Source of the DNA: Bifidobacterium breve
GTDB taxonomy: Bacteria; Actinomycetota; Thermoleophilia; Solirubrobacterales; Solirubrobacteraceae
Direction: 5' to 3'
Assembly: GCA_945878865.1 (NCBI GenBank)
Contig: CAMCUD010000006.1
Coordinates: forward strand, 1-64,000
Length of the DNA stretch: 64,000 bases
How positions within the stretch are numbered: position 1 is the stretch's first letter; each line of letters starts with the position of its first letter. The notes beneath the pieces are model-generated. The model had not been told where the DNA came from. It saw nothing but the letters and a program-made list of their open reading frames with translations, and did not search any database. The translations under genes were made by a program, and so were the position numbers. This document shows, one piece after another, positions 23,284-46,683 of this stretch.

Positions 23284-26200
23284 TCAGTGGCGGCGGACGT
23301 CCTCGCAGTTGCGCACGATGTCGTTGCGGTCCACGTCGGCGCGGTCGCGGCCGGGCCCGCAGTCGATCTCGTCCACGCCGCCGCCGACGGCGGTGATGCG
23401 GTCGTCGCCCGTGCCGCCCCGCAGCACGTCGTCGTCGAACCCGCCGTTGAGCGTGTCGTTGCCGGGCCCGCCGTCCAGCGTGTCCTCGCCGCGGCCGCCC
23501 TCGAGCTCGTCGTTGCCCGCCTCGCCGTGGATGTCGTCGTCGCCGAAGCGGCCGAACAGCCGGTCGCGACCTTCGCCGCCGCGCAGCTCGTCGTCGCCCT
23601 CGCCGCCGTCGAGGTCGTCGTTGCCACCCAGGCCGGAGATGAGGTCGCTGCCGTCGTTGCCGTTGATGAGGTCGCGCTTCTCGCTGCCGACGAGCTCATC
23701 GTCGCCGGCGGTGCCGATCGGCCGGTCCGGGCTCGGCGTGTCGCCGAGCGCCGAGCCGCGCTTCATCGCGTTGACGCCGCCGCGTGCGAGGCCGCGGTTG
23801 GCGACGAGCGCGACCGGGTCGTAGGCACCGTCGCGCGTGGGGTCGCCGTTGATGATGTGCTCACAGCTCTTCGCGCGCTTGGCCTCCGTGGTGCTGTCGA
23901 CGAACGCCCAGTCCTCGCCCCGCCCGCAGTCGTAGCGATCCTCGCCGGTCGAGCCGTACAGGACGTCGTCGCCCTCGCCGCCCTCGAGGTCGTCGTTGCC
24001 GCGGCCGCCGACGATCACGTCGTTGCCGCTGCCGCCGCGGACCGAGGGGTCCTCGCCGGCACCGCCGTCAACGACGTCGTCGCCCGGCCCGCCGTCGACG
24101 TCGTCGCTGCCCGGCCCGCCGAGGACGATGTCGTTGCCCTCGCCGCCGCGGACGGCCTGGTCGTTGCCGCGGTTGCCGTCGACGTAGTCGTCGCCCGGCC
24201 CGCCGTCGAGCAGGATGTCGTCGCCGAAGCGCGTCTCGACGAGGTAGTCGTCGCCCAGGCCTCCGCGCAGGGTGTCGTCACCGTCGAACCCGTCGAGCAC
24301 GTCGTCGCCGGGGCCGCCCTCGAGCCGGTCGTTGCCGGTGCCGCCGTCCAGCCGGTCGGCGTCGCTGCCGCCGGCGAGCCGGTCGTCGCCCGACCCACCG
24401 CGCAGCGTGTCGTCGCCGGCGCCGCCGTCAAGTCGGTCCGGCGCGAAGTTCCCGCTCACGTCGTCCTGGCCGGCGCCGCCGAGCAGCCGGTCACTCCCGC
24501 CGCCGCCCACGAGCCGGTCGTCGCCCCCGAGCCCGGACAGCTGATCACCGGAGTTCCGGCCCGAGAGGCGGTCGTCACCCGGGCCGCCGCGCAGGCGGTC
24601 GCGGCCTTGGCCGCCGGTGCGGCTGAACCCCTTGCGCGGGACCCGCACCGGCAGGCTGATCGTCACGGCGTCCGGTGTGCCGCCGACCGCCTGCCATCCG
24701 GTGGGGATCGCGGTGTGCGAGATCGCCGCCGCCCGGCCGGCCGAGCGCAGGGTGCGCCGGGCGTCGGCGGTGAGCGACACGATCGCCTCACCGGGGCCGG
24801 TGGCCGGGGTCTGGCCGAGCACCGTCGTGCCGGCGTGCAGCTCGATCGTTCCGCTGCACGTCGTGGCGCGGCGCGGGAGACAGAACGTCGTGAGCTTCGT
24901 GGCGGATGCGCTCGGGTCGATCGGCCGGCGCTCGACGCCGAGGATCGGCGCGGACAGCTCGGCCGGCAGGTCCGGCGCCGGCTTGGGCGGCACCGGAGGC
25001 GGCGGCGGCGGTGCCGAGACCTTCACCGAGATCGTCGCCGTCGCCGAGTCCAGCGCGCCGTCGCTGGCGCGCACGCCGACGCGCACCGTCGCCTCGGTTC
25101 CGGGGACGGGCGTGACCTTCAACCGGGCCCCGTCGAGCCGCGCGTCGGCGCCGCGGCTGCCGGACACGACGCGCAGGGTGAGCGGGTCACCATCGGGGTC
25201 CGTGCACGTCACGGCGACGTCGACCGGGACGTCCCAGGTCGTGCTCGTCTCCGCACCGGCGCAGGTCGGTGCGCGCGTCAGCCGGAAGCCGAGGACGGCG
25301 TCGGACGCGTCGGCGGCGGTGACCGGGCGGCCGCGGCCGTCGACGGCCACGCCGCGGGCGCCGTCCAGCCCTGCGCGCCCGACGCAGTCCGAGGTGCCGC
25401 GGTCGGCGACGCAGCCGGTGCCGTCGAATCCCTGCGCGAGCGCGGTCCCCCCGAGATCGAGGACCGCGAGCGTGTCGGAGACGGCGGCCGCGACGTAGAC
25501 CGTCCGGCCGTCGGGTGCGACCGCGAGGCCGTTGGCGCCGTCCAGGCCGCGGCCGTCCAGGCACTGGCCGCCGCTCCCGGTGTCGCTGATGCACGCGCTG
25601 ATCGCGCCCGACTGCGCGAGCGTCGAGCCCAGCGCGATCGCGGTGACGCTGTCGCCCGAGGACGACGCGACGAGCGCGGTGGTGCCGTCGGGCGAGACGG
25701 CGACCTTCGACGCACCCGCAAGGGCGCGTCCATCGCTGCAGCCCGATGTCCCGATCTCACGGATGCACCCGGCAGCGCCATAGGCCTGGCTCAGCGCGCC
25801 TGTCGAACCGTTGACCGCGAGCCGCACGAGCGAGGAGCTCACTGAGGCCGCGACGACGACACCGGTCGATGTGGCCGCCACGCCGGCGGTTCCGACCAGC
25901 GATGAGCCGTCGCCGCAGAGCCCCGACGTGCCGTTCTCCGTCCAGCAGCCCGCGGTGCCCGAGGGCTGGCCGGTGATGCCGGTGGCCGGGTCGGTGCGCA
26001 GCACGGCGACGCCGTTGGACGGTGCCCCTGAGGCGACGAACAGCCGTGCGCCGTCCCTGCTGAACGCGACGTCGACGGGGGCTGCGAGTGCACGACCGTC
26101 CAGGCACGCGCCGCCGCTGCCGGTCTCCGACGCGCAGCCAGCGGCGCCCAGGGGCTGCGTCAGCGCGCCGCTGGACGGATCGCGCAGGAAGAGGGCGACC

Positions 26201-26613
26201 CCGTCGCCGGCGGCGACCGCGACCATGCGACCGTCGGCCGACACAGTCACGGCAGTGGGGGCGGCGAGCGCCCGGGCGGTCTGACACGCGCCGTTCGAGG
26301 ACGAGAAGCAGCTGCCTGCGGTCAATCCGCCGTCGGCGTCACGACGCAGCGCGGTCAGCGCATTGGCGTCCCGCGCGACGGCGAACGCCGTGTCGCCGTC
26401 GGGGGCGAGGGCGATCCCGGAGGCGCCGTCGAGCGTGCCCGCGGGCTCGCAGCCGGTCAGCGTGACGGCGAGGCACCCACTGCCGCTCAACGGCGGGGCG
26501 AGCGTCGATGTCGCCGCCGAGGCGGAGGCGGGCACGACCCAGAGCAGCGCTGCGATGAGCGCGGGCAGGGGGCAGCGCAAGCGCCGCAGAGCGGAAGCCG
26601 TCGAGGAAGCCAT
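23284..26613 (-). CDS. Secreted seven-bladed beta-propeller protein with RTX calcium repeats
   Basis: 1109 residues. Signal peptide (about 1-34). About residues 40-410 hold seven repeats built on a GC...G...C.DG..L.GA..VAVSPDG plan, each with a Cys pair, which fits a seven-bladed propeller. Then an Ig-like domain, a Pro-rich hinge ([10 protein letters not shown]) and another beta domain. The C-terminal part has two blocks of GGxGxDxLx nonapeptides (RTX calcium-binding beta-roll), each closed by a similar Cys-containing cap ([14 protein letters not shown] and [15 protein letters not shown]). No wall anchor, so secreted. Function unknown; binding or adhesion is likely. Confidence 0.88.
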
Positions 26614-26657: not shown

Positions 26658-26820
26658 CATACCCTGCATCGGCGTTTCAGCGCAGGGGTGAAGATTCGGT
26701 GGACGAACGGCCCGGTGGCGACGCGCCCGGGTGGTGAGGTCGCGAAAGATGGAACTTTGGTGCGGTTTCGCCCCGCGAGTCGGCGCAATTCGCGCATCGC
26801 GCGGACTGGTCGGAGGTTCC

Positions 26821-27543
26821 GTGCGACATTGGCCGGGCTTCGTGACACCGCGCTTCCGTCGCCAGCCCTCTCCCGCGCGCTCGGCCTCCACGGGTGACGC
26901 GCCCCTGCGCGCGGCGGTCGCCTCGGCGCAGGCGTCGGCCGCGCGCTTTGCGTTCCGCAGCGCGGTGAGCGACCCGTTCTCCGCCGGCGGCGAGCTCGGC
27001 GGCTGGGAGGACGATGGCCTCGTCGACTTCCGCCGGCTCGCGGCCTGGTACCGGCGCCGGTGGCGTGCGCCGGGGGCCGGGGAGGACAGTGTGGGCGTGC
27101 TCTGCGGAGAGGACGCGGTGACGCTGCGCCCGGACGGCACCCGGACGGACGTGCGCGGCGCGCCCCACCTGCTTCATGCGCCGTCGAACCCCATCGGCCT
27201 CGTCGGCCTGCTTGACCCGCGGTTCTCCCAGGCCGCACCCTCAGGGGCCGGCCGGTGGCGCGTCTCGGTGGACTTCACTGCGGCGCGCGCCGTGCTCGGC
27301 GCCCGCGCGATCGGCCCGGGGCTCGCGCACGTGCGCGGCACGCTCGCCGCGACGGCGCAGGTGGCCGACGGCCGGCTCGAGATCGTGGCGGCGCAGACGG
27401 GGGTCTGGGGCGAGCCGCACGCCTGGGCGGTCGTCCGGTTCGCCCAGTGGGGCACGGTCGTCCCGGAGGGGCTCGCTGGCCTCACCCCCGGTGACGCGGA
27501 CCACGACGTGCTGCGCGACTCGCTCGCCACCGTGCTGCTCTGA
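26821..27543 (+). CDS. Protein of unknown function
   Basis: 240 residues from GTG 26821, chosen for the GGAGG four nt upstream; an in-frame start at 26731 also exists. The N-terminal 30 residues are Arg/Pro/Ser-rich, then an alpha/beta protein with many Trp residues (DFRRLAAWYRRRWRAP, VWGEPHAWAVVRFAQWG). No signal peptide, membrane helix or known motif. It lies just before the GntR gene, whose candidate operator begins at its stop codon. GC3 pattern is normal, so it is a real gene. Confidence 0.6.
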   Translation: MRHWPGFVTPRFRRQPSPARSASTGDAPLRAAVASAQASAARFAFRSAVSDPFSAGGELGGWEDDGLVDFRRLAAWYRRRWRAPGAGEDSVGVLCGEDAVTLRPDGTRTDVRGAPHLLHAPSNPIGLVGLLDPRFSQAAPSGAGRWRVSVDFTAARAVLGARAIGPGLAHVRGTLAATAQVADGRLEIVAAQTGVWGEPHAWAVVRFAQWGTVVPEGLAGLTPGDADHDVLRDSLATVLL

Positions 27544-27545
27544 CG

Positions 27546-27567
27546 CACTGAACGAATCTGTCCACTG
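27546..27567. promoter_or_regulatory. Candidate GntR operator upstream of gntR
   Basis: CACTGAAC and GTCCACTG form an imperfect inverted repeat (6 of 8 positions match) with a 6-nt spacer. The right half-site and spacer length are the same as in the perfect palindrome at 28439-28466. It lies where the -35 of the gntR promoter would be, so autorepression is likely. Confidence 0.55.
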
Positions 27568-27581
27568 CTTGCGCGCCCACG

Positions 27582-27587
27582 TAGGCT
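27582..27587 (+). promoter_or_regulatory. Leaderless -10 box, gntR
   Basis: TAGGCT lies 7 nt before the GTG at 27595. Confidence 0.6.
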
Positions 27588-27594
27588 GTGCGCC

Positions 27595-28371
27595 GTGAAC
27601 GGCTCGGGCTCCCCCTCTCCGCGCGTCGACGCCACCGAGCAGGCGTTGCGCGAGTGGCTGTCGCCGGGCACCCATCGTCCCGGCGATCGCCTGCCGCCCG
27701 AGCAGGATCTGGCGCTGCAGCTCGGCGTGTCGCGCGGCACCCTGCGAGCGGCGCTCGAGCGGCTAGAGCACAACGGGCTTATCGTGCGTCGTCGCGGCTC
27801 GGGCACGTTCGTCGGGGAGCTGCCGGTGTCGGGATCGTTCGACGCCGGCCTCGAGCGCCTCGAGCCGTACTCCGAGCTTGCCGCGCGCCAGGGGATCGAG
27901 ATCGGCGCGCTGGACGTCCAAGTCGCGCTTCAGTCGATCACCGACGACGCCGTGGCGGGCGCGCTGGGCGTGCCGGTCGGCGCCTACGCCCGCGTGGTCA
28001 CGCGGACGATGACCGCCGACGGCGAGCCGGCGGCGTGGATGTGCGACACGATTCCCGACCGACCCGGCGTGCCCGACGACGCGACGCTGCTGCGCCGGGT
28101 GCTCGAGGGCGGGATGGTCCTCGACGCGCTCGTCGGCGGGGGCGCGCGGGTGACGTACGCGCGCAGCGAGGTCGAGGCGATGGTCGTCGGCGACGAGCCC
28201 CGCGCGCAGGCGGCGCTCCGGTGCGACGCGGGGGTCGCCGCGCTCGTCCTCACGGAGACGATGTGCCTGTCGGACGGCACGCCCGTGCAGCACTCGGTCA
28301 ACGTCTTCGCCCCCGGCCGGCTGCGGCTCCACGTCATGCGGCTGCTGCTCGACGGCGGCCCGCCCGCCTGA
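27595..28371 (+). CDS. GntR-family regulator, HutC/UTRA type
   Basis: 258 residues. N-terminal winged helix (YRPGDRLP-like GTHRPGDRLPPEQDLALQLG, then VSRGTLRAALERLEHNGLI and RRRGSGTFVG), followed by a UTRA effector domain ending in SVNVFAPGRLRLHVMRLL. Members usually repress the adjacent catabolic operon until a small ligand binds. Immediately upstream of the amine/glutamate operon on the same strand; matching palindromes precede both transcripts. Confidence 0.9.
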   Translation: MNGSGSPSPRVDATEQALREWLSPGTHRPGDRLPPEQDLALQLGVSRGTLRAALERLEHNGLIVRRRGSGTFVGELPVSGSFDAGLERLEPYSELAARQGIEIGALDVQVALQSITDDAVAGALGVPVGAYARVVTRTMTADGEPAAWMCDTIPDRPGVPDDATLLRRVLEGGMVLDALVGGGARVTYARSEVEAMVVGDEPRAQAALRCDAGVAALVLTETMCLSDGTPVQHSVNVFAPGRLRLHVMRLLLDGGPPA

Positions 28372-28375
28372 CCTG

Positions 28376-28409
28376 GACCGTCGGTCGAGGTGACCCCCGA
28401 CCGCCGGTC
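28376..28409. promoter_or_regulatory. Two GACCGNCGGTC palindromes
   Basis: GACCGTCGGTC at 28376-28386 and GACCGCCGGTC at 28399-28409, both followed by GA, with centres 23 bp apart (about two helical turns). Unlike the GntR sites in sequence, they suggest a second regulator binding upstream of the operon. Confidence 0.45.
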
Positions 28410-28438
28410 GATGGTGCCGCTCCCGTCGCCGGAGATAC

Positions 28439-28466
28439 CGTCAGTGGACAAATGAGTCCACTGACG
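28439..28466. promoter_or_regulatory. Perfect palindromic operator of the amine/glutamate operon
   Basis: CGTCAGTGGAC and GTCCACTGACG form an 11-bp perfect inverted repeat with a 6-nt spacer (AAATGA), ending 21 nt before the ATG at 28488. The half-site recurs upstream of gntR. Best explained as the GntR operator. Confidence 0.7.
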
Positions 28467-28487
28467 TTCACCCGGGCCTGAGCTGCC

Positions 28488-29339
28488 ATGTGCGGCATCG
28501 CAGGCCTCTTCGCCAAGTCCCCGGAGATCGAGGCGCACCTCGGCGCCCACCTCGCCGGGATGATCGAGCCGCTGGGCGACCGCGGCCCCGACAGCGCGGG
28601 CGTCGCGATCTACCGCGCGCCCGTCGCGGAGGGGGAGATCAAGCTGTCGCTCCACGGGCCGGGCTGGCGGGACGTCGCCGGGAGCCGGGTCCTCGCCGAC
28701 CACGGTGACCAGGGCATCGTCGCCGCGCCCGAGGGCAGGGAGGTCCCCACCGGCGTCACCCTGCTCAGCGCGGGCACGGCCATCGAGACGACGAAGCGCG
28801 AGGGCCCGCCGCAGCGCCTCATCGAAGACGCGGGCCTGCTCGGCCTCGACGGAACCCACGCCGTCGCCCACACGCGGATGGCCACGGAGAGCCTCGTCAC
28901 GACGCTCGGGTCCCATCCGTTCTCCACGGGCCCAGACCTCTGCCTCGTGCACAACGGCTCGCTGTCGAACCACAATCAGCTGCGCCGCCGGCTGCGCGGC
29001 CACGGCGTGACGTTCCAGTCGGAGAACGACAGCGAGGTCGCCGCGGGCTACCTGACCTGGCGGTTCGCCGAGGGCGACACGCTCGACGAGGCGGTCCACC
29101 ACGCGCTCGAGGATCTCGACGGGTTCTTCACCTTCTGCATCGGCACGCGGGACGGCTTCGCCGTGGTCCGCGACCCGTTCGCCTGCAAGCCCGCGGTGCT
29201 CGCCGAGACCGAGGACTGGGTGGCGATGGCCTCCGAGCATCGCGCGATCGCCACGCTTCCCGGCGCCGAGGACGCCGAGCTGTGGGAGCCCGAGCCCGGC
29301 CGGGTCTACACCTGGTCGCATGCGGGGGTCCCGGCATGA
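28488..29339 (+). CDS. Class II glutamine amidotransferase subunit (MgsA/GlxB-like)
   Basis: 283 residues. N-terminal nucleophile hydrolase with Cys2 (MCGIAGLF) and the family motifs DRGPDSAGVAIY, AHTRMATES and VHNGSLSNHNQLR. It resembles the separate amidotransferase subunit of N-methylglutamate synthase (MgsA) or rhizobial GlxB, rather than a full GltB. Would free ammonia or an amine from a gamma-glutamyl amide and pass it to the FMN subunit. First gene of the operon; stop overlaps the next start (ATGA). Confidence 0.85.
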   Translation: MCGIAGLFAKSPEIEAHLGAHLAGMIEPLGDRGPDSAGVAIYRAPVAEGEIKLSLHGPGWRDVAGSRVLADHGDQGIVAAPEGREVPTGVTLLSAGTAIETTKREGPPQRLIEDAGLLGLDGTHAVAHTRMATESLVTTLGSHPFSTGPDLCLVHNGSLSNHNQLRRRLRGHGVTFQSENDSEVAAGYLTWRFAEGDTLDEAVHHALEDLDGFFTFCIGTRDGFAVVRDPFACKPAVLAETEDWVAMASEHRAIATLPGAEDAELWEPEPGRVYTWSHAGVPA

Positions 29340-30028
29340 GCAGCGTCCTGGAAGGCGTCACGCTCGACCTCTCCGAGCTGACGGTCCGCGACATCAACGC
29401 GCGCCTGCAGGCCGCGGCCGACGGCGAGCGCTTCGAGATCCTCCACCCGGACGGGCGCCACTCGATCGCGGCGGGGCTGACCGCCGCGATCGACGTGGAG
29501 GTCACCGGACACGCCGGCTACTACTGCGCCGGGATGAACCAGCGCGCGACGGTGCACGTTGCGGGGACGGTCGCCGCGGGGGTCGCGGAGAACATGATGA
29601 GCGGCCGGGTCGTCGTCGACGGCAACGCCGCGATGGCCGCGGGCGCGACGGCGCACGGCGGGATGCTCGTGGTCGGCGGCAACGCGTCGACGCGCTGCGG
29701 GATCTCGCTGAAGGGCGCCGACGTCGTGGTGCGCGGCTCGGTCGGCGCGTCGTGCGGCTTCATGGCGCAGTCCGGCCGGATCGTCGTGTGCGGCGACGCC
29801 GCCGAGGGCCTGGGCGATTCGCTCTACGAGGCGCGGCTGTTCGTCCGTGGCAGCGTCGCCGAGCTCGGCGCCGACTGCATCGAAAAGCCGATGACCGACG
29901 CGCACCGCGAGGAGCTCGGCGCCCTGCTCGTCACCGCGGGCCTGGGCGACGCCGACCCGGCCGACTTCCGCCGCTACGGCTCGGCGCGCCAGCTCTACAA
30001 CATCAAGGTGGACCGCATCGATGCCTGA
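29336..30028 (+). CDS. Glutamate-synthase GXGXG-domain subunit (MgsB/GlxC-like)
   Basis: 230 residues forming a right-handed beta-helix of the GltB C-terminal type: repeated G-x-x-x-G turns are visible through GRVVVDGNAAMAAGATAHGG, GISLKGADVVVRGSVG and GRIVVCGDAAEGLGD. Structural subunit expected to join the amidotransferase and FMN subunits. Overlaps both neighbours (4 nt and 8 nt), consistent with a fixed-stoichiometry complex. Confidence 0.85.
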   Translation: MSSVLEGVTLDLSELTVRDINARLQAAADGERFEILHPDGRHSIAAGLTAAIDVEVTGHAGYYCAGMNQRATVHVAGTVAAGVAENMMSGRVVVDGNAAMAAGATAHGGMLVVGGNASTRCGISLKGADVVVRGSVGASCGFMAQSGRIVVCGDAAEGLGDSLYEARLFVRGSVAELGADCIEKPMTDAHREELGALLVTAGLGDADPADFRRYGSARQLYNIKVDRIDA

Positions 30029-31346
30029 GACCCTCGTCCCGCGCGCGTCGGCGACGTTCGACCGCGCGACCATCGCCGAGATCCAGCGGGCCGCCAACGA
30101 AGGCGTCTACGCGATCCGCGGCGGCGGCGCCAAGCGGCGCGTCCCGCACTTCGACGACCTCGTGTTCCTCGGCGCGTCGATGTCGCGCTACGCGCTGGAG
30201 GGCTACCGCGAGCACTGCGGCACCGACGTGCTTCTCGGCACAAGGCATGCCGCGAACCCCGTCGCGCTCGACATCCCGGTGACGATCGCCGGGATGAGCT
30301 TCGGCGCGCTGAGCGCCAACGCCAAGGAGGCGCTGGGGCGCGGCGCGTCGATGGTCGGCACGAGCACGACCACGGGCGACGGCGGGATGACGCCGGAGGA
30401 GCGCGCGGCGTCGTCGACGCTCGTCTACCAGCTGCTGCCCTCGCGCTACGGGATGAACCCCGACGACCTGCGGCGTGCCGACGCGATCGAGATCGTTGTC
30501 GGCCAGGGGGCCAAGCCGGGCGGGGGCGGGCTGCTGCTCGGCCAGAAGATCTCCGACCGCGTCGCCGAGATGCGCGACCTGCCGACGGGGATCGACCAGC
30601 GCAGCGCCTGCCGGCACCCGGACTGGACGGGCTCGGACGACCTCGCCATCAAGATCGAGGAGCTGCGCGAGATCACCGGCTGGCGCGTGCCGATCTACGT
30701 GAAGGTCGGCGCGTCACGGCCGTTCTATGACGTGTCGCTCGCGGTGAAGGCGGGTGCCGACGTCGTCGTCCTCGACGGCATGCAGGGCGGGACCGCCGCG
30801 TCCCAGGACGTGTTCATCGAGCACGTCGGCATCCCGACGCTCGCGGCCATCCCGCCCGCGGTCGCCGCGCTCCAGGAGCTGGGGATGCACCGGACGAAGG
30901 GCGGCGTGCAGCTCATCGTCTCGGGCGGGATCCGCACCGGCGCCGACGTGGCGAAGGCCATCGCGCTCGGCGCCGACGCCGTCTCGATCGGGATCGGCGC
31001 GCTCGTGGCGCTTGGCGACAACAGCCCGAAGTGGGCGGCCGACTACGCCGCGATGGGCACGGAGCCCGGCGCCTACGACGCCTGGCACGAGGGCCGTGAT
31101 CCCGCCGGCATCTCCACGCAGGACCCCGAGCTGGAGGCGCGCCTCGATCCGGAGATCGGCGCTCGGCGCCTGGCCAACTACCTGCGCGTGGTGACGATGG
31201 AGGCCCAGACCATCGCCCGCGCCTGCGGCAAGTCCCACCTGCACAACCTCGAGCCCGAGGACCTCGAGGCGCTCACCGTGGAGGCCGCCGCGATGGCGCG
31301 CGTTCCCCTGGCGGGCACCTCGTGGATCCCCGGCGCGACCGCCTAG
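30021..31346 (+). CDS. FMN-binding glutamate-synthase-like subunit (MgsC/GlxD-like)
   Basis: 441 residues, TIM-barrel synthase domain. PVTIAGMSFGALSANAKEAL and GGMTPEERA begin the barrel, GQGAKPGGGGLLLGQKISDRVAEMR and YVKVGASRPFYDVSLAVKAGADVVVLDG match the FMN/2-oxoglutarate site, and VSGGIRTGADVAKAIALGADAVSIG the phosphate grip. Where GltB proteins have the three Cys ligands of a 3Fe-4S cluster before GVATQD, this protein reads GAYDAWHEGRDPAGISTQD with none. It would make glutamate or an N-substituted glutamate from 2-oxoglutarate. Confidence 0.85.
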   Translation: MPETLVPRASATFDRATIAEIQRAANEGVYAIRGGGAKRRVPHFDDLVFLGASMSRYALEGYREHCGTDVLLGTRHAANPVALDIPVTIAGMSFGALSANAKEALGRGASMVGTSTTTGDGGMTPEERAASSTLVYQLLPSRYGMNPDDLRRADAIEIVVGQGAKPGGGGLLLGQKISDRVAEMRDLPTGIDQRSACRHPDWTGSDDLAIKIEELREITGWRVPIYVKVGASRPFYDVSLAVKAGADVVVLDGMQGGTAASQDVFIEHVGIPTLAAIPPAVAALQELGMHRTKGGVQLIVSGGIRTGADVAKAIALGADAVSIGIGALVALGDNSPKWAADYAAMGTEPGAYDAWHEGRDPAGISTQDPELEARLDPEIGARRLANYLRVVTMEAQTIARACGKSHLHNLEPEDLEALTVEAAAMARVPLAGTSWIPGATA

Positions 31347-31353
31347 GAGGCCG

Positions 31354-32688
31354 ATGTCCACCCCCAGCTTCTCCACCGAGGCCACGCCGCTCGCCGAGCT
31401 GCCCGAGGAGGTGCAGTTCATCGCGGTGCAGTGGGTCGATGTCCATGGCGCGGCGAAGGCCAAGCTCGTCCCGCGGGCGGCGTGGGCCGAGACGTGCGCG
31501 CCCGGTGGCGGCGCGGGCTTCGCGGCGTTCGCCAACCACGGCTTCGCGCGCGGCCCCGAGCACCCGGAGTTCCTCGCGGTGCCCGACCCGTCGACGGTGA
31601 CCGTGCTGCCCCACCAGCCCGACATGGCGGTCGCGTTCTCCACGGTCATGGACGGTGAGCAGGTCGCGACGTGCGACGCGCGGTCGATCCTCGCGCGGGT
31701 GCAGGCGATGGCCGCCGATCGCGGGCTTGCGCCGGTCGTCGGGATGGAGCCGGAGTTCTTCCTGCTGCGCCGCGGCGAGGACGGGGCGCTCGTGCCCTAC
31801 GACGGGCTCGACGTCCTGGACAAGCCGTGTTACGACCTCAAGGCGCTGCTGCGCAGCGCGCCGGTGCTCAAGGAGCTCGTCACCGCGATGCAGGACCTCG
31901 GGTGGGGCGTCACCGCGCTCGACCACGAGGACGGCAACGGCCAGTTCGAGATCAACTTCGGGTTCGAGGACGCGCTGACGACGGCCGACCGCTTCACGCT
32001 TCTCCGGACACTCATCGCCGACATCGCGGCGGCGCACGGGGCGATCGGCTCGTTCATGCCCAAGCCGCTGGCGGGGCGGACCGGCTCGGGCGCGCACGTG
32101 CACCTGTCGTGCTGGGCCGACGACGGGACGAACGCGTTCCTCGACCACGAGGATCCACGTGGGCTCGGGCTCTCCCCGGTGGCATACAGCTTCATCGGCG
32201 GTGTCCTCGCGCACGGCCGCGCGCTGGCGGCGCTGTCGATGCCGACGGTCAACTCCTACAAGCGACTGCACAGCTCCGGTGGCAGCTCGGGCGCGTCGTG
32301 GTCGCCCGACGCGATCGTCTACGGCGCGAACAACCGCACCACGATGCTGCGCGTCCCGGGGCCGGGCCGGTTCGAGAACCGCGCCGTGGACTCCTCCTGC
32401 AACCCGTACCTCGCGCTCGCGGCCATGGTCGCCGCGGGCCTCGACGGCGTCGACCGCGGGCTCGACCCGGGCGCGCCCGTCATCGGCGCCGCGACGTCGC
32501 TCGGGGCCGAGACGCTGCCGCGCACGCTCGCCGACGCGCTCGACGCGCTGGAGACCGACACGGTCCTGCGCGACGCGCTGGGCGAGGAGGCGCTCGCCGA
32601 GTTCGTCGCCGTCAAGCGGGTGGAGTGGGGCGACTTCATGGAATCGGTCTCCTCGTGGGAGGAGGAGACCTACCTGCGGAGGACCTGA
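31354..32688 (+). CDS. Glutamine-synthetase family ligase (GlnT/gamma-glutamylmethylamide synthetase-like)
   Basis: 444 residues, preceded by a strong TAGGAGG ribosome-binding site. Catalytic domain motifs: GMEPEFFLL, DHEDGNGQFEINF, GSGAHVHLS, the NSYKRL loop and FENRAVDSSCNPYLALA. The short N-terminal beta-grasp and co-location with mgsABC-like genes favour an amine ligase (methylamine or another amine plus glutamate plus ATP) over housekeeping ammonia assimilation. No adenylylation loop is evident. Confidence 0.85.
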   Translation: MSTPSFSTEATPLAELPEEVQFIAVQWVDVHGAAKAKLVPRAAWAETCAPGGGAGFAAFANHGFARGPEHPEFLAVPDPSTVTVLPHQPDMAVAFSTVMDGEQVATCDARSILARVQAMAADRGLAPVVGMEPEFFLLRRGEDGALVPYDGLDVLDKPCYDLKALLRSAPVLKELVTAMQDLGWGVTALDHEDGNGQFEINFGFEDALTTADRFTLLRTLIADIAAAHGAIGSFMPKPLAGRTGSGAHVHLSCWADDGTNAFLDHEDPRGLGLSPVAYSFIGGVLAHGRALAALSMPTVNSYKRLHSSGGSSGASWSPDAIVYGANNRTTMLRVPGPGRFENRAVDSSCNPYLALAAMVAAGLDGVDRGLDPGAPVIGAATSLGAETLPRTLADALDALETDTVLRDALGEEALAEFVAVKRVEWGDFMESVSSWEEETYLRRT

Positions 32689-32691
32689 GCC

Positions 32692-33810
32692 ATGGGCACG
32701 CGCGTGCTGGTCGTCGGGGGCGGCATCACGGGGCTCGCGGTCGCCGTGCACGGCGCGCGGCGCGGGCTCGACGTGACGCTCGTCGAGCCCGGTCCGCTCG
32801 GCGGGCTGTCGACGCAGAAGTCCGGCGCGCTCGTGCGCACGCACTACGTCGACCGGTCGTCGGCGAAGCTCGCGGTGCGAGGGCTGCGGGACTTCGAGCG
32901 CTTCGAGGAGGTCTACGGCGGGCCGTCGGGCTTCGAGGCGACCGGCTTCGCCTATCTGCCCGAGCCCGGCGAGCCGATGCACGGGCGGATCGCGATGCTC
33001 CAGTCGGTCGGCATCGAGACGATGCTCGTGGGACCCGACGAGCTGCGCGCGCTCGATCCGTCCCTCGATGTGCGCGACGTGGAGATCGCGGCGTTCGAAC
33101 CGCGTTCCGGGTTCGCCGATCCGGCGCTGACGTGCGCGACGCTCGCCGCCGCGGCGCACGAGGCCGGCGCGGACCTGCGCACCGGGGTGGGTGTCGCCTC
33201 GCTGCGTGACCACGGTGCGGTGCTCAGCGACGGGTCCGTCGTCGAGGCCGATGCGACCGTCCTGTGCGCGGGCGCGTTCTCCGCCGAGCTGGCCGGCGGC
33301 GTTGGCCTGGACCTGCCCATCCGCCCGACCGCGGTCAAGCTCGCGTTCGTCGAGCGCCGGGTGGCGCGCCACCTCACCGTCATCGACGCGGTCAACGGCA
33401 CGTACCTGCGCCCCGATCCGGCCGGAGCGACGCTCGTCGGCCGCCGGACGTGGACCGACGAGCCGATGCCGAGTCCGCACGCGGACCTGCCGGAGGTCGA
33501 CGACGCGTTCGTCGCCGACGTGCACGAGCGGCTCATCCGCCGGATCCCCAGCGCGGCCGGCGGGGCGGTCGTCTCCACGCGGGCAGGCATGCTCGACATG
33601 ACGCCCGACGGGCTGCCGCTCGTCGGCCCCAGCGACGTGGACGGGCTGTGGCTCTGCTGCGGCTGGAGCGGCACGGGCTTCAAGACCGGCCCCTCGGTCG
33701 GCGAGGCGCTCGCGCGGTGGATCGACACGGGGCTGCCGGACCGCGACCTCGCGGGCCTGGCGCCCGATCGGGAGATGGTCGAGCCGGTGGCGGCGCGCTC
33801 GCCGCACTGA
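32692..33810 (+). CDS. FAD-dependent amine oxidase/dehydrogenase (DAO family)
   Basis: 372 residues, 3 nt after the ligase. N-terminal dinucleotide fold VLVVGGGITGLAVAVHGARRG, STQKSGALVRTHYVD near the flavin, and C-terminal MTPDGLPLVGPSDVDGLWLCCGWSGTGFKTGPSVGE resemble sarcosine oxidase beta/monomeric amino-acid oxidases. Its place after the synthase genes suggests it oxidises an N-substituted glutamate, closing the cycle by releasing glutamate and an aldehyde. This would replace the four-subunit MgdABCD dehydrogenase of known methylamine users. Confidence 0.82.
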   Translation: MGTRVLVVGGGITGLAVAVHGARRGLDVTLVEPGPLGGLSTQKSGALVRTHYVDRSSAKLAVRGLRDFERFEEVYGGPSGFEATGFAYLPEPGEPMHGRIAMLQSVGIETMLVGPDELRALDPSLDVRDVEIAAFEPRSGFADPALTCATLAAAAHEAGADLRTGVGVASLRDHGAVLSDGSVVEADATVLCAGAFSAELAGGVGLDLPIRPTAVKLAFVERRVARHLTVIDAVNGTYLRPDPAGATLVGRRTWTDEPMPSPHADLPEVDDAFVADVHERLIRRIPSAAGGAVVSTRAGMLDMTPDGLPLVGPSDVDGLWLCCGWSGTGFKTGPSVGEALARWIDTGLPDRDLAGLAPDREMVEPVAARSPH

Positions 33811-33822
33811 CGGCCAACCCGA

Positions 33823-33857
33823 CTGAGGAAAGGTCCGCTCAGCGACCCTTTCCTCAG
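33823..33857. terminator. Bidirectional terminator after the amine/glutamate operon
   Basis: CTGAGGAAAGG (33823-33833) and CCTTTCCTCAG (33847-33857) form an 11-bp perfect stem, with CGCT/AGCG able to pair in the loop. It sits between the convergent FAD enzyme and NRAMP-like genes. Confidence 0.7.
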
Positions 33858-39081: not shown

Positions 39082-40761
39082 TCACCCTGCGAGCACGTCG
39101 TGGGCGAAGCGCACGGCCATCGAGCCGTCACCCACGGCGGCCGCAACGCGCTTCGTCGAGCCGCTGCGCACGTCGCCCGCGCAGAACACGCCCGGGCTCG
39201 TGGTCTCGAGCAGGTGCGGCTCGCGGTCGCCGACCGTCCACTGCGGCCCGCCGCCGTTGGCCGCGACCGCGTCGGTCCCGGCGCACAGGAAGCCACGCTC
39301 GTCGGTGGCGAGCAGGCCGCGCACCATGTCGGTGCACGGCTCCGCGCCGATCATGAGGAACGCGGCGCTGGCGGGGATGGTCTCCTGCGAACCGTCGCCC
39401 TTGTGGCGGACGCGCACGCCGGCCAGGGCGCTCTCCCCCTCGAACGCCACCACCTCGGCGGACGTCACGAGCCGCACGTTCGGCCGCCGCTCCAAGCGGT
39501 CGATGAGGTACTGCGACATCGTCGCCTCCAGCCCGGGCCTCCGCACGACGACGGTCACGCTGCGCGCGAACATCGCGAGGTGCCCCGCGGCCTGGCCGGC
39601 GGAGTTGCCCCCGCCGATCACCACGACGTCCTGGTCGCGGTTGCGCGCCGCGTCCGAGCGTGACGCCGCGTAGTACACGCCCGCGCCCTCGAACCGGTCG
39701 AGACCCTCGGCCTCCATCCGCCGCCAGCGCGCGCCGGTCGCCACGAGCAGCGTGCGCGCAAGGACGTGCTGGCCGTCGCCGAGATCCACGCGCAGCAGAC
39801 CCTCCGGCCCGGCGACGACCTCCTCGGCCGGGTGGAAGCTCGAGAACTGTGCGTCGAACCGGCGCGCCTGCAGCGTGGCGCGGCGGGTCAAGTCCTCGCC
39901 GGAGACGCCCGTCGGGAAGCCGAGGTAGTTCTCGATGCGCATGCTCGTGCCCGCCTGCCCGCCGGGCGCCCACGCCTCGGCGACGAAGGTCGATAGACCC
40001 TCGCTGCCGCCGTACACCGCGGCGGCCAGGCCCGCCGGGCCTGCGCCGAGGATGACGAGGTCGAACCGCCGGCCGTCGACCTCTGCGCGCAGCCCGAGCT
40101 CGCGCGCGACCTGCGCCGGCGACGGGTTCGTCAGGACCCGCTCGTTGCGGATGAGTACCGGCGTCTCCTCACGCGGGATGTCGAGCTTGCCGAGCAGCTT
40201 CGCGGTGTCCTCGTCCTCCGCCGGGTCGTACCAGCGCACCGGCAGGAGGTTGCGCTCGAGCAGATCGCGCACTTCGAACGCGCGGCGCGACCCGCGGTCG
40301 GCCACGAGCCGCAGCACGCCGTACCCCTGGGAGACAAGCCAGTCGCGCCGGGCGGTCAGCGCGCCGAGCACCATCTCGGAGAACTCCGGCCACTCGGCGA
40401 GCATCTTGCGCAGCTTCGCGCTGGGGAAGACGATGAGCGTGCTCTCTTCCGCGGCCACGCACGACACGACGGTCGGCTCGCCGGTGACCATCGCGATGTC
40501 GCCGAGGAACGTCGGGATGTCGACGCGCGAGACGGCGATCTCCCGGCCCGGCCAGTGGTCGATGAACTCCACGGCGCCGCTGATGAGCATGTAGAACGGC
40601 GCGTCGCGCACGCCCTGGGCGAACAGCACGTCGCCTGGCTGCATCGTGACCTCGTCGCCGAGCTTGCGGAACTTCGCGAGCTTCGCCTCGGGAAGCTGCG
40701 GGAACATCACCTCGTCCGGCCCGTCGACGGATGTGTCAGCGCGGACGGGAGATTCAGCCAT
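39082..40761 (-). CDS. Cyclic-nucleotide-binding flavoprotein, thioredoxin-reductase-like without CxxC
   Basis: 559 residues. An N-terminal cNMP/Crp-type sensor domain (about 20-140), a short thioredoxin/glutaredoxin-like linker (about 160-225), then a two-dinucleotide-fold reductase with FAD site GAGPAG (239-244) and NADPH site VIGGGNSAGQ (381-390). Where thioredoxin reductases have CATC, this protein reads GVYYAASRSDAA, so it cannot reduce a disulfide in the usual way and may use another acceptor. It starts 16 nt after the last ABC transporter gene and may share its transcript. Confidence 0.85.
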   Translation of the reverse strand: MAESPVRADTSVDGPDEVMFPQLPEAKLAKFRKLGDEVTMQPGDVLFAQGVRDAPFYMLISGAVEFIDHWPGREIAVSRVDIPTFLGDIAMVTGEPTVVSCVAAEESTLIVFPSAKLRKMLAEWPEFSEMVLGALTARRDWLVSQGYGVLRLVADRGSRRAFEVRDLLERNLLPVRWYDPAEDEDTAKLLGKLDIPREETPVLIRNERVLTNPSPAQVARELGLRAEVDGRRFDLVILGAGPAGLAAAVYGGSEGLSTFVAEAWAPGGQAGTSMRIENYLGFPTGVSGEDLTRRATLQARRFDAQFSSFHPAEEVVAGPEGLLRVDLGDGQHVLARTLLVATGARWRRMEAEGLDRFEGAGVYYAASRSDAARNRDQDVVVIGGGNSAGQAAGHLAMFARSVTVVVRRPGLEATMSQYLIDRLERRPNVRLVTSAEVVAFEGESALAGVRVRHKGDGSQETIPASAAFLMIGAEPCTDMVRGLLATDERGFLCAGTDAVAANGGGPQWTVGDREPHLLETTSPGVFCAGDVRSGSTKRVAAAVGDGSMAVRFAHDVLAG

Positions 40762-40777: not shown

Positions 40778-41851
40778 TCAGGCCGACTGCGCCACCGGCA
40801 GCACCTCGGGCGTGACGTCGCCCGCCGCCTCCGGGCTGTCCGGGGAGCGCGTCGACGCGGCGATCTGCGCCTCGGTGACGTTGAGCGGGTAGTGGCACGC
40901 CGCCGCGTGACCGCCGTCGTACTGCGTCAGCGGCGGCACCTCCACGCTGCACTTCGCCTGCGCCCGCGGGCAGCGCGTATGGAACACGCACCCGCTCGGC
41001 GGGTCGATCGGCGACGGCGGCTCACCGCCGACCACGGCGCGCTGGCGCCGCGCGCGGCGCGGCTCGGGCACGGGGATCGCGCCGAGCAGCGCCTCGGTGT
41101 ACGGGTGGATCGGCCGGTGGTAGAGCTCCTCGGCCGGCGAGAGCTCCACGATCCGACCGAGGTACATCACGGCGATCCGGTCGCTGACGTGGCGGACCAC
41201 GGCGAGGTCGTGCGCGACGAACAGGTAGCTCAGGCCGAGCTCCTCCTGGAGGTCGTCGAGCAGGTTGACGATCTGCGCCTGGATCGAGACGTCGAGGGCG
41301 CTGACGGGCTCGTCGAGCACGATGAGCTTCGGCTTGACCGCGAGCGCGCGGGCGATCCCGATGCGCTGGCGCTGGCCGCCGCTGAACTCGTGCGGGTAGC
41401 GCGAGCGCGCGCTCGCGGGCAGTCCGACGAGCTCGAGCAGTTCCCCGACCCGCGCGCGGCGCTCGGCCTTGCCGACGCCCTGGCGCTTGAGCGGCGCCGA
41501 GACGATGTCGCCGACGCATTTACGCGGGTTCAGTGACGCGTGCGGGTCCTGGAAGACGAGCTGCGCGTCGCGGCGCAGCGGCGCGAGGTCCCGCCGCCCC
41601 GCGGTCGTGACGTCCTGCCCCTGGAAGGTGATCGAGCCGCCCGTCGGGGTGAGCAGTCGCAGCACCGTGCGCGCGAGCGTCGTCTTGCCGCAGCCTGATT
41701 CGCCGACGAGCCCGAGCGTCTCGCCGCGGCTCAGGGTGAAGCTCACGTCGTCGACGGCGCGGACGTGCCCGACGGTCCGGTCGAACAGCAGGCCCGCGCG
41801 CAGCGGGAACCACTGGCGGACATGCTCGACGCGCAACAGGTCGTCGCTCAC
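40778..41851 (-). CDS. Peptide/nickel-type ABC transporter ATPase (DppF/OppF)
   Basis: 357 residues. Walker [11 protein letters not shown]-loop, signature [15 protein letters not shown], Walker B LIVLDEP and the H-switch in FVAHDLAVV, plus the C-terminal oligopeptide extension with [15 protein letters not shown], whose cysteines match the 4Fe-4S motif of this family. Overlaps the DppD gene by 4 nt (GTGA). Confidence 0.93.
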
Positions 41852-42915
41852 GGCGCGGCCTCCTCAGCGGGCGCCGCCAGCCCGATGTGCCCGTCGGCGA
41901 TGACGCGGCGCGCGCGCTTCTCCTCCAGGGGAAGCGCACAGCGATCCGGATGGGGCGGGCGGGATCCGATATCCGGGTCGGCGTCGGCGAGCGGTGGCTC
42001 GGGCACGCAGCCCTCGAACGCGTGCGGGCAGCGCGGGCGGAACTTGCAGCCCTCCGGCGGCGCCATCAGCGACGGCGGCGTGCCGCCGATCGACGGCAGG
42101 CGCTCGGGCCGCGGCAGGTCGACCCGGGCGATCGAGCCGAGCAGCCCCCATGTGTACGGGTGGCGCGGGTCGGCGAACAGCTCGTCCACGGTCGCCTGCT
42201 CGACGATCCGCCCGGCGTACATCACCGCGACGCGGTCGGCGATCTCCGCGACGACGCCGAGGTCGTGGGTGACGAGGATGACCCCGAGCCCGGTCTGCTC
42301 CTTGAGGTCGCGAAGCAGGTCGAGGATCTGCGCCTGGATGGTCACGTCCAGCGCCGTCGTCGGCTCGTCGGCGATGAGGAGCTTCGGCCGGCACGACAGC
42401 GCCATCGCGATCATCACGCGCTGGCGCATCCCGCCGGAGAGCTCGTGCGGGTAGGCGTCGATGCGCGTCTCGGCCTGCGGGATCCCGACGCGCTTGAGCA
42501 GCTCGAGCACGCGGTCGCGCGCCTGGTCGCGGTCGAGGTCCTCGTGCGCGCGGATCTGCTCGGCGATCTGCGCGCCGATCCGCTGCACCGGGTTCAGGGA
42601 GCTCAGCGGATCCTGGAAGACGATCGCGACCTCCGCGCCGCGCGCGCGGCGCAGCCGCGGCTCCTCGGCGGCGACGAGGTCCTCGCCGTGCAATCGCGCC
42701 GCGCCCTCGATCTCCGAGTTCGGGCCGCGGGTCAAGCCCATGATCGTCAGCGCCGTCACGGACTTCCCCGAGCCCGACTCGCCGACGATCGCGAGCACCT
42801 CGCCGGCGCGGACGTCGAGGCTCACGCCGTCGACGGCGTGCACCACGCCGTCCTCGGTGCGGAACCGCACACGCAGGTCCTCGACGTCGAGCAGGGGGAC
42901 GCGGGGCTCGGTCAT
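41848..42915 (-). CDS. Peptide/nickel-type ABC transporter ATPase (DppD/OppD)
   Basis: 355 residues. Walker A GESGSGKS, signature [15 protein letters not shown], Walker [21 protein letters not shown], and the C-terminal [16 protein letters not shown] Cys motif. The ATG at 42915 overlaps the permease stop. Partner of the DppF ATPase. Confidence 0.93.
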
Positions 42916-43865
42916 GTCAGCCGGATCCTCGGGTCGAGCGCCGCGTACAGGATGTCGACGACCGTGTTGAGCACGACGATGAACACCGCGCCGAGCATCG
43001 TCACCGCCATGATCGGGGGGACGTCGAGCTGTGAGACCGAGTCGGCGTAGTACGAGCCGATCCCCTGGAGGTCGAACACCGTCTCGGTGAGGATCGCGCC
43101 GCCGCCGATCACCAGGCCGAAGTCCAGGCCCCACAGCGTGAGGATCGGGATCATCGACGTGCGCAGGACGTGGCGGACGATCACGCGGCGCTCGCTGATC
43201 CCCTTCGCGCGCGCGGTGCGCACGAAGTCCTCGTTCATCGTCTCGAGGATCGTGCTGCGCAGCACGCGCGAGTAGATCCCGATGAAGAGGATCGAGAGGA
43301 CCACCCAGGGCATGATCAGGTGGTACGTCCACTGCCACAGGCCGCCCTCGCTGATCGGCACGTACCCGCCGTTGGGGAACAGCCCGAGCTTGTAGCCGAG
43401 GTAGTGGTTGACGAGCGCGCCGAGCCAGAAGACCGGGATCGAGATCCCGATCAGCGCGAGCACGTTGACGACGAAGTCGGCCTTCTTGCCGGCGCGCAGC
43501 GCGCTGAACACGCCGAGCGCCACGCCGGCGGCCATCCACAAGATCGCCGCGCCGATCGCCAGCGCGAACGTCCGCGGGAGGCCTTCGCGCAGCTCGGCGT
43601 AGACGTCGCGCTGCTGCTGGTAGCTCTTGAAGTTCTTCCCCGTGACGAGCTTCTCCATCATCTTCACGTACTGCGTGGTGATGGGTTTGTCGAAGCCCCA
43701 GTCCTTGCGGATCGCGGCGATCTGCTGGGGCGTGGACTGCTTGCCCGCCATGCGGTTCTCCGGCGCGCCGTTGGGGATCACGAAGAAGATCCCGAAGACG
43801 ATCACCGAGACGGCGAACAGGACGAAGATCATGCCGAGCAGGCGGCGGACGATGAACCGGGCCAC
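42912..43865 (-). CDS. Peptide/nickel-type ABC transporter permease (DppB)
   Basis: 317 residues, six membrane helices and the EAA-type coupling loop (RTARAKGISERRVIVRHVLRTSMIP). An extracytoplasmic loop after helix 1 (about 30-100) is typical of DppB. GTG start 2 nt after the DppC stop. Confidence 0.92.
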   Translation of the reverse strand: MARFIVRRLLGMIFVLFAVSVIVFGIFFVIPNGAPENRMAGKQSTPQQIAAIRKDWGFDKPITTQYVKMMEKLVTGKNFKSYQQQRDVYAELREGLPRTFALAIGAAILWMAAGVALGVFSALRAGKKADFVVNVLALIGISIPVFWLGALVNHYLGYKLGLFPNGGYVPISEGGLWQWTYHLIMPWVVLSILFIGIYSRVLRSTILETMNEDFVRTARAKGISERRVIVRHVLRTSMIPILTLWGLDFGLVIGGGAILTETVFDLQGIGSYYADSVSQLDVPPIMAVTMLGAVFIVVLNTVVDILYAALDPRIRLT

Positions 43866-43867
43866 GG

Positions 43868-46539: not shown

Positions 46540-46561
46540 GGGGGGAAGGCCTCCTTGTGAG

Positions 46562-46677: not shown

Positions 46678-46683
46678 CCCTGC

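What the first reader, a model, noticed from the sequence alone, without database searches (positions are those of the whole stretch)
27544..33810. Compact five-gene amine-to-glutamate operon with a single-gene oxidase
Amidotransferase, GXGXG and FMN subunits followed by a glutamine-synthetase relative is the mgsABC-gmaS order of the N-methylglutamate pathway (family knowledge). Here the four-subunit MgdABCD dehydrogenase is absent, and a single DAO-family flavoprotein follows instead. I infer a route that ligates an amine to glutamate, transfers it to 2-oxoglutarate and oxidises the N-substituted glutamate. No C1 genes lie nearby, so the amine need not be methylamine.
Basis: partly seen in the sequence, partly recalled or inferred. 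Interest (0 to 1): 0.85.

Follow-up and report, generated by a model that had tools for sequence, protein, structure and literature searches.

The report
Methylamine operon with single-gene oxidase
A soil actinobacterium carries a compact operon that seems to take up methylamine by attaching it to glutamate, but ends the route with one small flavin enzyme instead of the usual four-part enzyme, a shortcut that related bacteria appear to have made in two different ways.

Summary
Window 28488-33810 is a tight five-gene operon, mgsA-mgsB-mgsC-gmaS-DAO, behind a GntR gene and a perfect palindrome. The ligase is GmaS-type, not a glutamine synthetase: it passes the NCBIfam type III cut-off, keeps the catalytic residues and those that set GmaS apart from GS, and falls in the GmaS/GlnT clade. 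In G031 (same family) the same mgsABC-gmaS genes are followed by canonical mgdC-D-A-purU, in G012 by mgdC; so the single DAO flavoprotein stands where N-methylglutamate dehydrogenase stands. Four of four mgs genomes with the mgs-associated DAO lack the MgdC N-terminal half; 59 of 66 others have a match. In two further genomes the operon ends in a different, distantly related flavoprotein (N-methyltryptophan oxidase family), again without MgdC. In Conexibacter sp. DBS9H8 a DAO relative adjoins dimethylamine monooxygenase genes. Best reading: a shortened N-methylglutamate pathway in which one flavoprotein, lacking the FMN site and a folate domain, oxidises N-methyl-L-glutamate to glutamate plus formaldehyde. 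No activity was measured. Another amine is not excluded, but context favours methylamine. A new variant of a known pathway.

The parts
27560..27567 (+). half-site GTCCACTG of the putative GntR operator, 27 nt before the gntR start
   Evidence: 5 matches in 64 kb, mean 1.86 in shuffles: weak on its own
27595..28371 (+). GntR-family regulator with UTRA domain, 258 aa
   Evidence: homologues of 51% (L099, 2.4 kb from mgdA) and 48% (L100)
28440..28465 (.). perfect 10-bp inverted repeat with 6-nt spacer (GTCAGTGGAC-AAATGA-GTCCACTGAC), putative GntR operator before mgsA
   Evidence: the core occurs once in the window and in 0 of 100 shuffles
28488..29339 (+). mgsA: class II glutamine amidotransferase, begins MCGI (nucleophile Cys2, role recalled), 283 aa
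   Evidence: 55-65% to mgsA of canonical and DAO-type relatives, 32% to G001
29336..30028 (+). mgsB: GXGXG (glutamate synthase domain 3) subunit, 230 aa
   Evidence: 56-68% to relatives' mgsB, 43% to G001
30021..31346 (+). mgsC: FMN glutamate synthase domain, 441 aa
   Evidence: PF01645 E 1.4e-86; 76-87% to one group of mgsC in the class, further groups at 51-63%
31354..32688 (+). gmaS: gamma-glutamylmethylamide synthetase-type ligase, 444 aa
   Evidence: TIGR03105 506.9 bits against cut-off 469.6; PDB 9qur and 7cql best; residues; tree
32692..33810 (+). DAO-family single flavoprotein, proposed N-methylglutamate oxidase/dehydrogenase, 372 aa
   Evidence: PF01266 E 2.2e-58; model pLDDT 90.9; fold of SoxB / DMGDH / L-proline dehydrogenase beta; position of mgd in relatives
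33823..33857 (.). inverted repeat between the operon end and the convergent Nramp gene, probable terminator
   Evidence: read by eye in the sequence printed; not tested with a tool

Best explanation
A shortened N-methylglutamate pathway. GmaS ligates methylamine to the gamma-carboxylate of glutamate with ATP. MgsABC turns gamma-glutamylmethylamide and 2-oxoglutarate into N-methyl-L-glutamate. The single DAO flavoprotein then oxidises the N-methyl group, regenerating glutamate and releasing free formaldehyde, with electrons going to oxygen or a quinone. It takes the place of the four-subunit, folate-linked MgdABCD. GntR probably controls the operon from the palindrome before mgsA. Shown here: genes, order, homology, GmaS residues, no MgdC match, positional replacement, no His at the FMN-attachment place, no folate domain. 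Inferred: all enzyme activities, the electron acceptor, free formaldehyde and the regulation.
For: (1) GmaS identity: NCBIfam TIGR03105 over cut-off. RhGmaS residues K30, A48, Y147, D177, E179, E186, N188, W300 and R312 are kept, where the genome's own two GlnA-type ligases have F, D, F, H, E, E, D/A, E and R/A (residue roles from passages of PMC7948447). The tree puts it in a GmaS/GlnT clade apart from GlnA (98/91). (2) Positional replacement: G012 and G031, whose GmaS are 77-81% identical and nearest in the tree, have mgsABC-gmaS followed by mgdC (G012, contig ends inside it) or mgdC-mgdD-mgdA-purU (G031); the window, G022 and G339 have the DAO there. (3) Complementary distribution: no MgdC N-terminal match in 4 of 4 mgs genomes with the mgs-associated DAO, a match in 59 of 66 others (Fisher p 3.6e-4; 0.0065 if the ten weak 39-42% matches count as absent). 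The full-length MgdC search finds only matches to its C-terminal part in those four. (4) Second replacement: G121 and G170 have mgsABC-gmaS followed at 3 and 1 nt by an N-methyltryptophan-oxidase family enzyme (399 and 358 bits, cut-off 257) and no MgdC match. (5) Methylated-amine context: in Conexibacter sp. DBS9H8 a DAO homologue (50%) lies next to HODM alpha/DmmA-type genes, with gmaS 2.5 kb on its other side and mgsABC about 13 kb away. (6) DAO fold: L-proline dehydrogenase beta, dimethylglycine dehydrogenase and SoxB, Z about 45. Arg49 and Lys331 are invariant in the seven sequences; by recalled MSOX numbering they match the substrate-carboxylate residues Arg52 and Lys348.
Against: No activity, expression or growth data. 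Seven of the 66 other mgs genomes have neither enzyme (G032, G288, G403, G379, G283, G360, G291; three of them over 90% complete), so absence of MgdC alone is not diagnostic. Ten of the 59 MgdC matches, all in one family of the class, are only 39-42% identical and could be another sarcosine-oxidase alpha subunit. Two more mgs genomes (G182, G205) have a 37-38% DAO homologue away from mgs and also an MgdC match; with these counted p is 0.0045. DAO homologues of 44-50% also occur in three records with no mgs gene in the stretch seen (L058/L081, L059/L080, L082); two of those genomes (G111, G183) are not among the 86 with MgsC. No HODM-family oxygenase in this genome, and no mycothiol-dependent formaldehyde dehydrogenase over cut-off in 10 of 10 genomes, so the fate of formaldehyde is open. 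The window-type GmaS is its own branch and differs from RhGmaS at 4 of 23 ligand positions (174, 175, 189, 191); the Gln175-to-Ala change is shared by 22 of 22 window-type and canonical GmaS of this class.
Confidence: 0.67

Rival explanations
1. Same chemistry, different amine: the ligase takes another primary amine (ethylamine, ethanolamine or one released from a larger compound) and the DAO oxidises the matching N-alkylglutamate to an aldehyde other than formaldehyde.
For: The ligase is a separate branch of the GmaS clade and lacks Gln175. Similar mgs-GS modules occur beside genes that do not look like C1 genes: Aquabacterium olei plasmid, microcompartment-like loci L105 and L107. No C1 genes were recognised next to the operon.
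Against: The nearest ligases sit next to mgdC, and in G031 mgdC-mgdD-mgdA-purU, which point to a C1 product. A DAO relative sits beside dimethylamine monooxygenase genes. The Gln175 change is shared by ligases of canonical clusters.
Confidence: 0.2
2. The DAO works upstream: it releases methylamine from an N-methyl amino acid by oxidising the other carbon-nitrogen bond, and the four other genes assimilate the methylamine.
For: In G339, G121 and G170 hyuB and an M20 amidase (hyuA too in G339 and G121) lie upstream of mgsABC-gmaS. NmpAB/NmpC of N-methylpyrrolidone degradation are an amidohydrolase plus amino acid oxidase (passage in PMC12866759).
Against: N-methylglutamate would then have no known oxidase in these genomes. 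The window genome and G022 have no hyuB homologue at E 1e-100. The DAO stands where mgd stands in relatives.
Confidence: 0.09
3. The DAO is an ordinary D-amino-acid dehydrogenase or glycine oxidase and only happens to be next to the operon.
For: DAO families share one fold, and its NCBIfam scores to several of them are similar and low.
Against: Scores are far below the cut-offs: DadA 71.9/383, ThiO 75.1/250.8. gmaS-DAO order is kept in three genera, 3 nt apart in the window, overlapping in G339 and about 45 nt apart in G022.
Confidence: 0.03
4. The operon is an ammonia-assimilating GS/GOGAT set.
For: The Pfam domains are those of GS and GOGAT.
Against: The Asp50 and Glu-flap residues of true GS are Ala and Trp here, and the genome has GlnA-type ligases at C2 and C11.
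Confidence: 0.01

Closest known systems
N-methylglutamate pathway (gmaS, mgsABC, mgdABCD; Methyloversatilis, Methylobacterium extorquens DM4)
   Same: mgsA-mgsB-mgsC-gmaS order and all four gene families; the mgsABC-gmaS order of M. extorquens DM4 is stated in passages of PMC6237917
   Different: no MgdC match in the genome; in its place one 372-aa flavoprotein without FMN site, folate domain or partner subunits nearby
Mycobacterium gma-mgsABC clusters with separate mgdA-D (passages of PMC5023230)
   Same: Actinobacterial Gma and MgsA-C genes together, dehydrogenase genes not adjacent
   Different: there the mgdA-D genes are present in the genome; here MgdC is not found
Heterotetrameric sarcosine oxidase beta / MgdA
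   Same: Fold (Z about 45) and invariant Arg/Lys of the carboxylate site
   Different: 22-26% identity; the His at SoxB position 173 (FMN attachment, recalled) is kept in MgdA but is Pro144 here; no alpha, gamma or delta subunit nearby
N-methyl-L-tryptophan oxidase / monomeric sarcosine oxidase
   Same: Single-chain flavoprotein; a member of this family takes the same operon position in G121 and G170
   Different: about 25% identity; below both NCBIfam cut-offs; Gly299 where that family has a Cys (covalent FAD, recalled)
GmaS of Rhodovulum (PDB 7cql) and glutamate-methylamine ligase (PDB 9qur)
   Same: Best relatives among solved structures (E 2.2e-98 and 1.4e-110), same catalytic residues
   Different: Own branch of the clade; 4 of 23 ligand positions differ from RhGmaS

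Membership tests
GmaS / type III glutamate ligase | NCBIfam TIGR03105 over curated cut-off | tested here: met
   506.9 bits against 469.6
GmaS / type III glutamate ligase | GmaS catalytic residues, and lack of the GS Asp50 and Glu-flap residues | tested here: met
   D177, E186, R312, A48, W300 all in the GmaS state; of 23 ligand positions, 174, 175, 189 and 191 differ
GmaS / type III glutamate ligase | Ligates methylamine | not testable with these tools
   needs an assay
N-methylglutamate synthase MgsABC | Three subunits in order A-B-C next to gmaS, amidotransferase beginning MCGI, FMN subunit | tested here: met
   MgsC 76-87% to the group that includes canonical clusters
Canonical N-methylglutamate pathway | Four-subunit MgdABCD dehydrogenase in the genome | tested here: not met
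   MgdC N-terminal half has no match at E 1e-20 in G000; full MgdC finds only a 29% match over its C-terminal part; MgdA, MgdB and MgdD were not searched genome-wide
Heterotetrameric sarcosine oxidase beta / MgdA | TIGR01373 cut-off, FMN-attaching His, alpha subunit partner | tested here: not met
   69.9 against 529.45 bits; His replaced by Pro; no MgdC match in the genome
Monomeric sarcosine / N-methyltryptophan oxidase | NCBIfam TIGR01377 or NF008425 cut-off and covalent-FAD Cys | tested here: not met
   52 against 479.65 and 82.2 against 257 bits; Gly at the Cys position
D-amino-acid dehydrogenase DadA | NCBIfam PRK00711 cut-off | tested here: not met
   71.9 against 383 bits
Glycine oxidase ThiO | TIGR02352 cut-off | tested here: not met
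   75.1 against 250.8 bits

The most novel reading that the evidence does not exclude
The four-subunit, folate-linked N-methylglutamate dehydrogenase has been replaced at least twice, by one-gene flavoproteins only distantly related to each other (this DAO type, and an N-methyltryptophan-oxidase type). This creates a folate-independent short N-methylglutamate pathway that yields free formaldehyde and serves mainly to take nitrogen from methylamine.
Probability: 0.58. Interest if true: 0.55.

Novelty: new variant of a known kind. Interest (0 to 1): 0.5.

Why it matters
Gene surveys of methylamine use look for gmaS, mgsABC and mgdABCD (an example is PMC10753782, passages) and can read a missing mgdABCD as a broken pathway. 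If one flavoprotein can close the route, genomes without mgdABCD may still use methylamine, with a different carbon fate: free formaldehyde instead of methylene-folate. A compact five-gene set would also be easier to move into laboratory hosts, and a one-gene enzyme easier to study than the tetramer.

Tried and rejected
Rejected: ammonia-assimilating GS/GOGAT (residues and tree). Rejected: the Gln175-to-Ala change as a mark of a new amine; it is present in 22 of 22 window-type and canonical GmaS rows of this class. Rejected: DadA, ThiO, MSOX/MTOX and SoxB membership for the DAO. A palindrome like the window's was sought in the loci numbered from L035 that were held; only the window has the exact form, so the operator has no comparative support.

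Literature: 'N-methylglutamate oxidase' 0 papers; 'N-methylglutamate dehydrogenase' with 'sarcosine oxidase' and 'subunit' 3 papers; N-methylglutamate with monomeric sarcosine or N-methyltryptophan oxidase, at least two of four terms, 8 papers; pathway gene names 28 papers; glx/glnT names 4 papers; a broader search 0 papers; Actinobacteria, methylamine and Solirubrobacter 14 papers; N-methylpyrrolidone 6 papers. I saw these listings, and passages (not whole texts) of PMC6237917, PMC5023230, PMC7948447, PMC3160333, PMC12866759 and PMC10753782. PMC3160333 describes SAR11 soxBDAG as the putative dehydrogenase and a separate monomeric sarcosine oxidase gene. None of what I read describes a one-gene replacement; the library lacks most subscription papers.

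Cases that fit neither type: G373 has mgsABC-gmaS with no oxidase found in the 16-kb stretch and MgdC elsewhere. G001 and G002 (same genus as the window) have a gmaS of 71-72% with more distant mgsABC, no oxidase recognised next to it, and MgdC about 20-23 kb away. The Candidatus Mycobacterium methanotrophicum plasmid hit to the DAO is only 31% identical. Chain lists from the second structural aligner show fold only.

Limits: the DAO survey scored only 4 first-look candidates per genome, and the MgdC survey at most 22, so homologues may have been missed; all 45 candidates were scored for the window genome. The two N-methyltryptophan-oxidase cases were found by reading neighbours, not by a systematic search; the pooled Fisher value that includes them (7.8e-6) mixes two ways of choosing, and related genomes are not independent. 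Of the 70 genomes, G001 and G002 were included although their MgsC is only 61-62% identical.
Full report
What is there. The window holds a GntR/UTRA regulator (27595-28371) and a five-gene operon on the + strand: mgsA 28488-29339, mgsB 29336-30028, mgsC 30021-31346, gmaS 31354-32688, DAO 32692-33810. Genes overlap or lie 3-7 nt apart. A perfect 10-bp inverted repeat with a 6-nt spacer (28440-28465) lies just before mgsA; its core occurs once in 64 kb and in 0 of 100 shuffles, and one arm recurs before gntR. The next gene downstream, an Nramp transporter, is convergent. Upstream are an open frame without Pfam match (26731-27543) and a large repeat-rich protein on the other strand.

The ligase. 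NCBIfam names it type III glutamate-ammonia ligase over cut-off (506.9/469.6 bits), while type I GlnA and gamma-glutamylputrescine synthetase stay below theirs. The closest solved structures are a glutamate-methylamine ligase (9qur, E 1.4e-110) and RhGmaS (7cql, E 2.2e-98), well ahead of the best entry named glutamine synthetase (1.1e-65). The JBC paper on RhGmaS (passages read) names Asp177, Glu186 and Arg312 as catalytic and says that true GS has an Asp and a Glu where GmaS has Ala48 and Trp300. The window ligase has all five GmaS states; the genome's own two GlnA-type ligases have His177, Asp48 and Glu300. Of 23 ligand positions it differs from RhGmaS at four (174, 175, 189, 191). In a tree of 45 ligases it lies in the GmaS/GlnT clade (32 rows, 98/91), apart from GlnA, on a branch (11 rows, 100/100) that is drawn as sister to the proteobacterial and the other Thermoleophilia GmaS (that sister group itself is weak, 87/51). 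Gln175 is Ala here, but in 22 of 22 window-type and canonical GmaS of this class.

Natural experiment 1. In the same family, G012 and G031 carry mgsABC-gmaS with 77-81% identical GmaS followed by mgdC (contig ends within it, G012) or by mgdC-mgdD-mgdA-purU (G031); the window, G022 and G339 carry the DAO (61% and 65% to the window's) at that place. A Patulibacter contig begins in gmaS and continues with the DAO (64%) and an ammonium transporter. In the ligase tree the window row joins the two mgd rows (96/82), so partner oxidases have been exchanged within the branch; the direction is not settled.

Natural experiment 2. Of 399 genomes of the class, 86 have an MgsC match at E 1e-100 or better, in several groups from 51 to 87% identity, and 8 have a DAO homologue at 1e-45 or better. 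I searched 70 mgs genomes (68 with MgsC of at least 76% identity, some partial, plus G001 and G002) with the first 500 residues of MgdC: 59 have a match at E 1e-20, 11 do not. The 11 include the four mgs genomes whose DAO is at least 50% identical and lies in the mgs cluster (G000, G339, G022, G187) and seven without it (G032, G288, G403, G379, G283, G360, G291). Fisher p = 3.6e-4; with the 40 genomes at least 90% complete alone, a match in 0 of 3 against 34 of 37, p = 0.002. Ten of the 59 matches, all in family f10, are only 39-42% identical; counted as absent, p = 0.0065. Two further mgs genomes (G182, G205) have a 37-38% DAO homologue away from mgs, and an MgdC match; with them counted as DAO genomes, p = 0.0045. 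Relatedness is not corrected for.

Natural experiment 3. In G121 and G170 (another family of the class; 92% and 84% complete) the operon mgsABC-gmaS (67.6% and 69.5% to the window ligase) is followed at 3 and 1 nt by a flavoprotein of the N-methyl-L-tryptophan oxidase family (399 and 358 bits, cut-off 257), about 25% identical to the DAO and with the Cys of covalent flavin attachment (role recalled) that the DAO lacks. Neither genome has an MgdC match. So two different one-gene flavoproteins fill the same place. In G121 hyuA-hyuB-M20 stand directly upstream of mgsABC; in G170 M20 and the end of hyuB are seen before the contig ends. In G339, a DAO genome, hyuA, hyuB and M20 (56-69% identical) stand upstream too, about 1.7 kb away.

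Natural experiment 4. That genome has no MgdC beyond a 35% match to the C-terminal part. The dimethylamine monooxygenase product is methylamine (established knowledge), so this places the DAO in a methylated-amine cluster.

The oxidase. AlphaFold2 with 11 sequences gives pLDDT 90.9. The nearest folds are L-proline dehydrogenase beta, dimethylglycine dehydrogenase and the beta subunit of heterotetrameric sarcosine oxidase (Z 44.5-45.9, rmsd 2.0-2.5 A), then glycine oxidase and monomeric sarcosine oxidase. Arg49 and Lys331 are invariant across the DAO, MgdA, the N-methyltryptophan-oxidase type and a third DAO. MgdA keeps the His at SoxB position 173, which I recall as the FMN attachment; the DAO has Pro144 there. 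At 372 residues it has no room for the folate-binding domain of dimethylglycine dehydrogenase. Hence I expect one non-covalent FAD and free formaldehyde; this is inference.

Reading. The best-supported mechanism is GmaS, then MgsABC, then the one-gene oxidation of N-methyl-L-glutamate. Shown: gene content, homology, residues, positional replacement, complementary distribution. Inferred: every activity, the acceptor, the carbon fate and the regulation. What speaks against it: 44-50% DAO homologues in three records without mgs in the stretch seen (L058/L081, L059/L080, L082); seven mgs genomes with neither enzyme; no HODM oxygenase in G000 (found in 4 of 12 genomes searched); no mycothiol formaldehyde dehydrogenase over cut-off in 10 of 10 genomes. 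A different amine remains possible (about 0.2).

Novelty. The parts are known families and the upper pathway is known; the one-gene lower step, reached twice, is not described in what I could search and read. I file it as a new variant of a known kind.

Noticed in passing
L106:1608-11953, L108:5989-13396, L074:1030-6118: hyuA-hyuB (caprolactamase / N-methylhydantoinase type, below cut-offs) and an M20 amidase lie upstream of mgsABC-gmaS in G121 and G339, and M20 plus the end of hyuB in G170; perhaps they release methylamine from a cyclic N-methyl amide. A HyuB of 68-75% (besides the query's own genome G121) was found in G012, G373, G339 and G170 of 14 genomes searched, not near mgs in G012 and G373.
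   Followed up: partly
L105:3-11725; L107:1731-9903: mgsABC homologues (MgsC 56-57%) beside microcompartment-shell-like proteins, an aldehyde-dehydrogenase-like gene and a GS-like ligase, with a PuuB-like flavoprotein in L105: GS/Mgs chemistry may feed a bacterial microcompartment. Names other than Mgs and GS are by eye.
   Followed up: no
L099:2265-12077; L100:523-8542: Third paralogous set: ammonium-transporter-like gene (by eye), GS-like ligase (37-38%) and mgsABC (MgsC 52%), in L099 followed by another single DAO (431 aa), in genomes that also have an mgdC match.
   Followed up: partly
L099:12979-13713; L100:12862-13581: GntR homologues 51% and 48% identical to the window's regulator, in L099 2.4 kb from mgdA; may point to a shared signal.
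   Followed up: partly
G001:C1:2234890-2237811: mgdC matches in three pieces, so it may be broken or mis-sequenced; the same-genus G002 has it in one piece.
   Followed up: no
L094:4279-11267: Aquabacterium olei plasmid: glnT-mgsABC with a separate FAD oxidoreductase (29% to the DAO), HutD and N-formylglutamate deformylase, and no sarcosine-oxidase-type genes annotated within the stretch shown.
   Followed up: partly
window 40778-48915: Oligopeptide-type ABC transporter genes on the - strand (ATPase, OppC-type permease, SBP_bac_5 domain).
   Followed up: partly
window 23284-26613: 1109-aa repeat-rich protein with GGxGDDxL-type repeats (calcium-binding type, by eye) on the - strand upstream.
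   Followed up: no
window 39082-40761: Cyclic-nucleotide-binding domain fused to a pyridine nucleotide-disulphide oxidoreductase.
   Followed up: no
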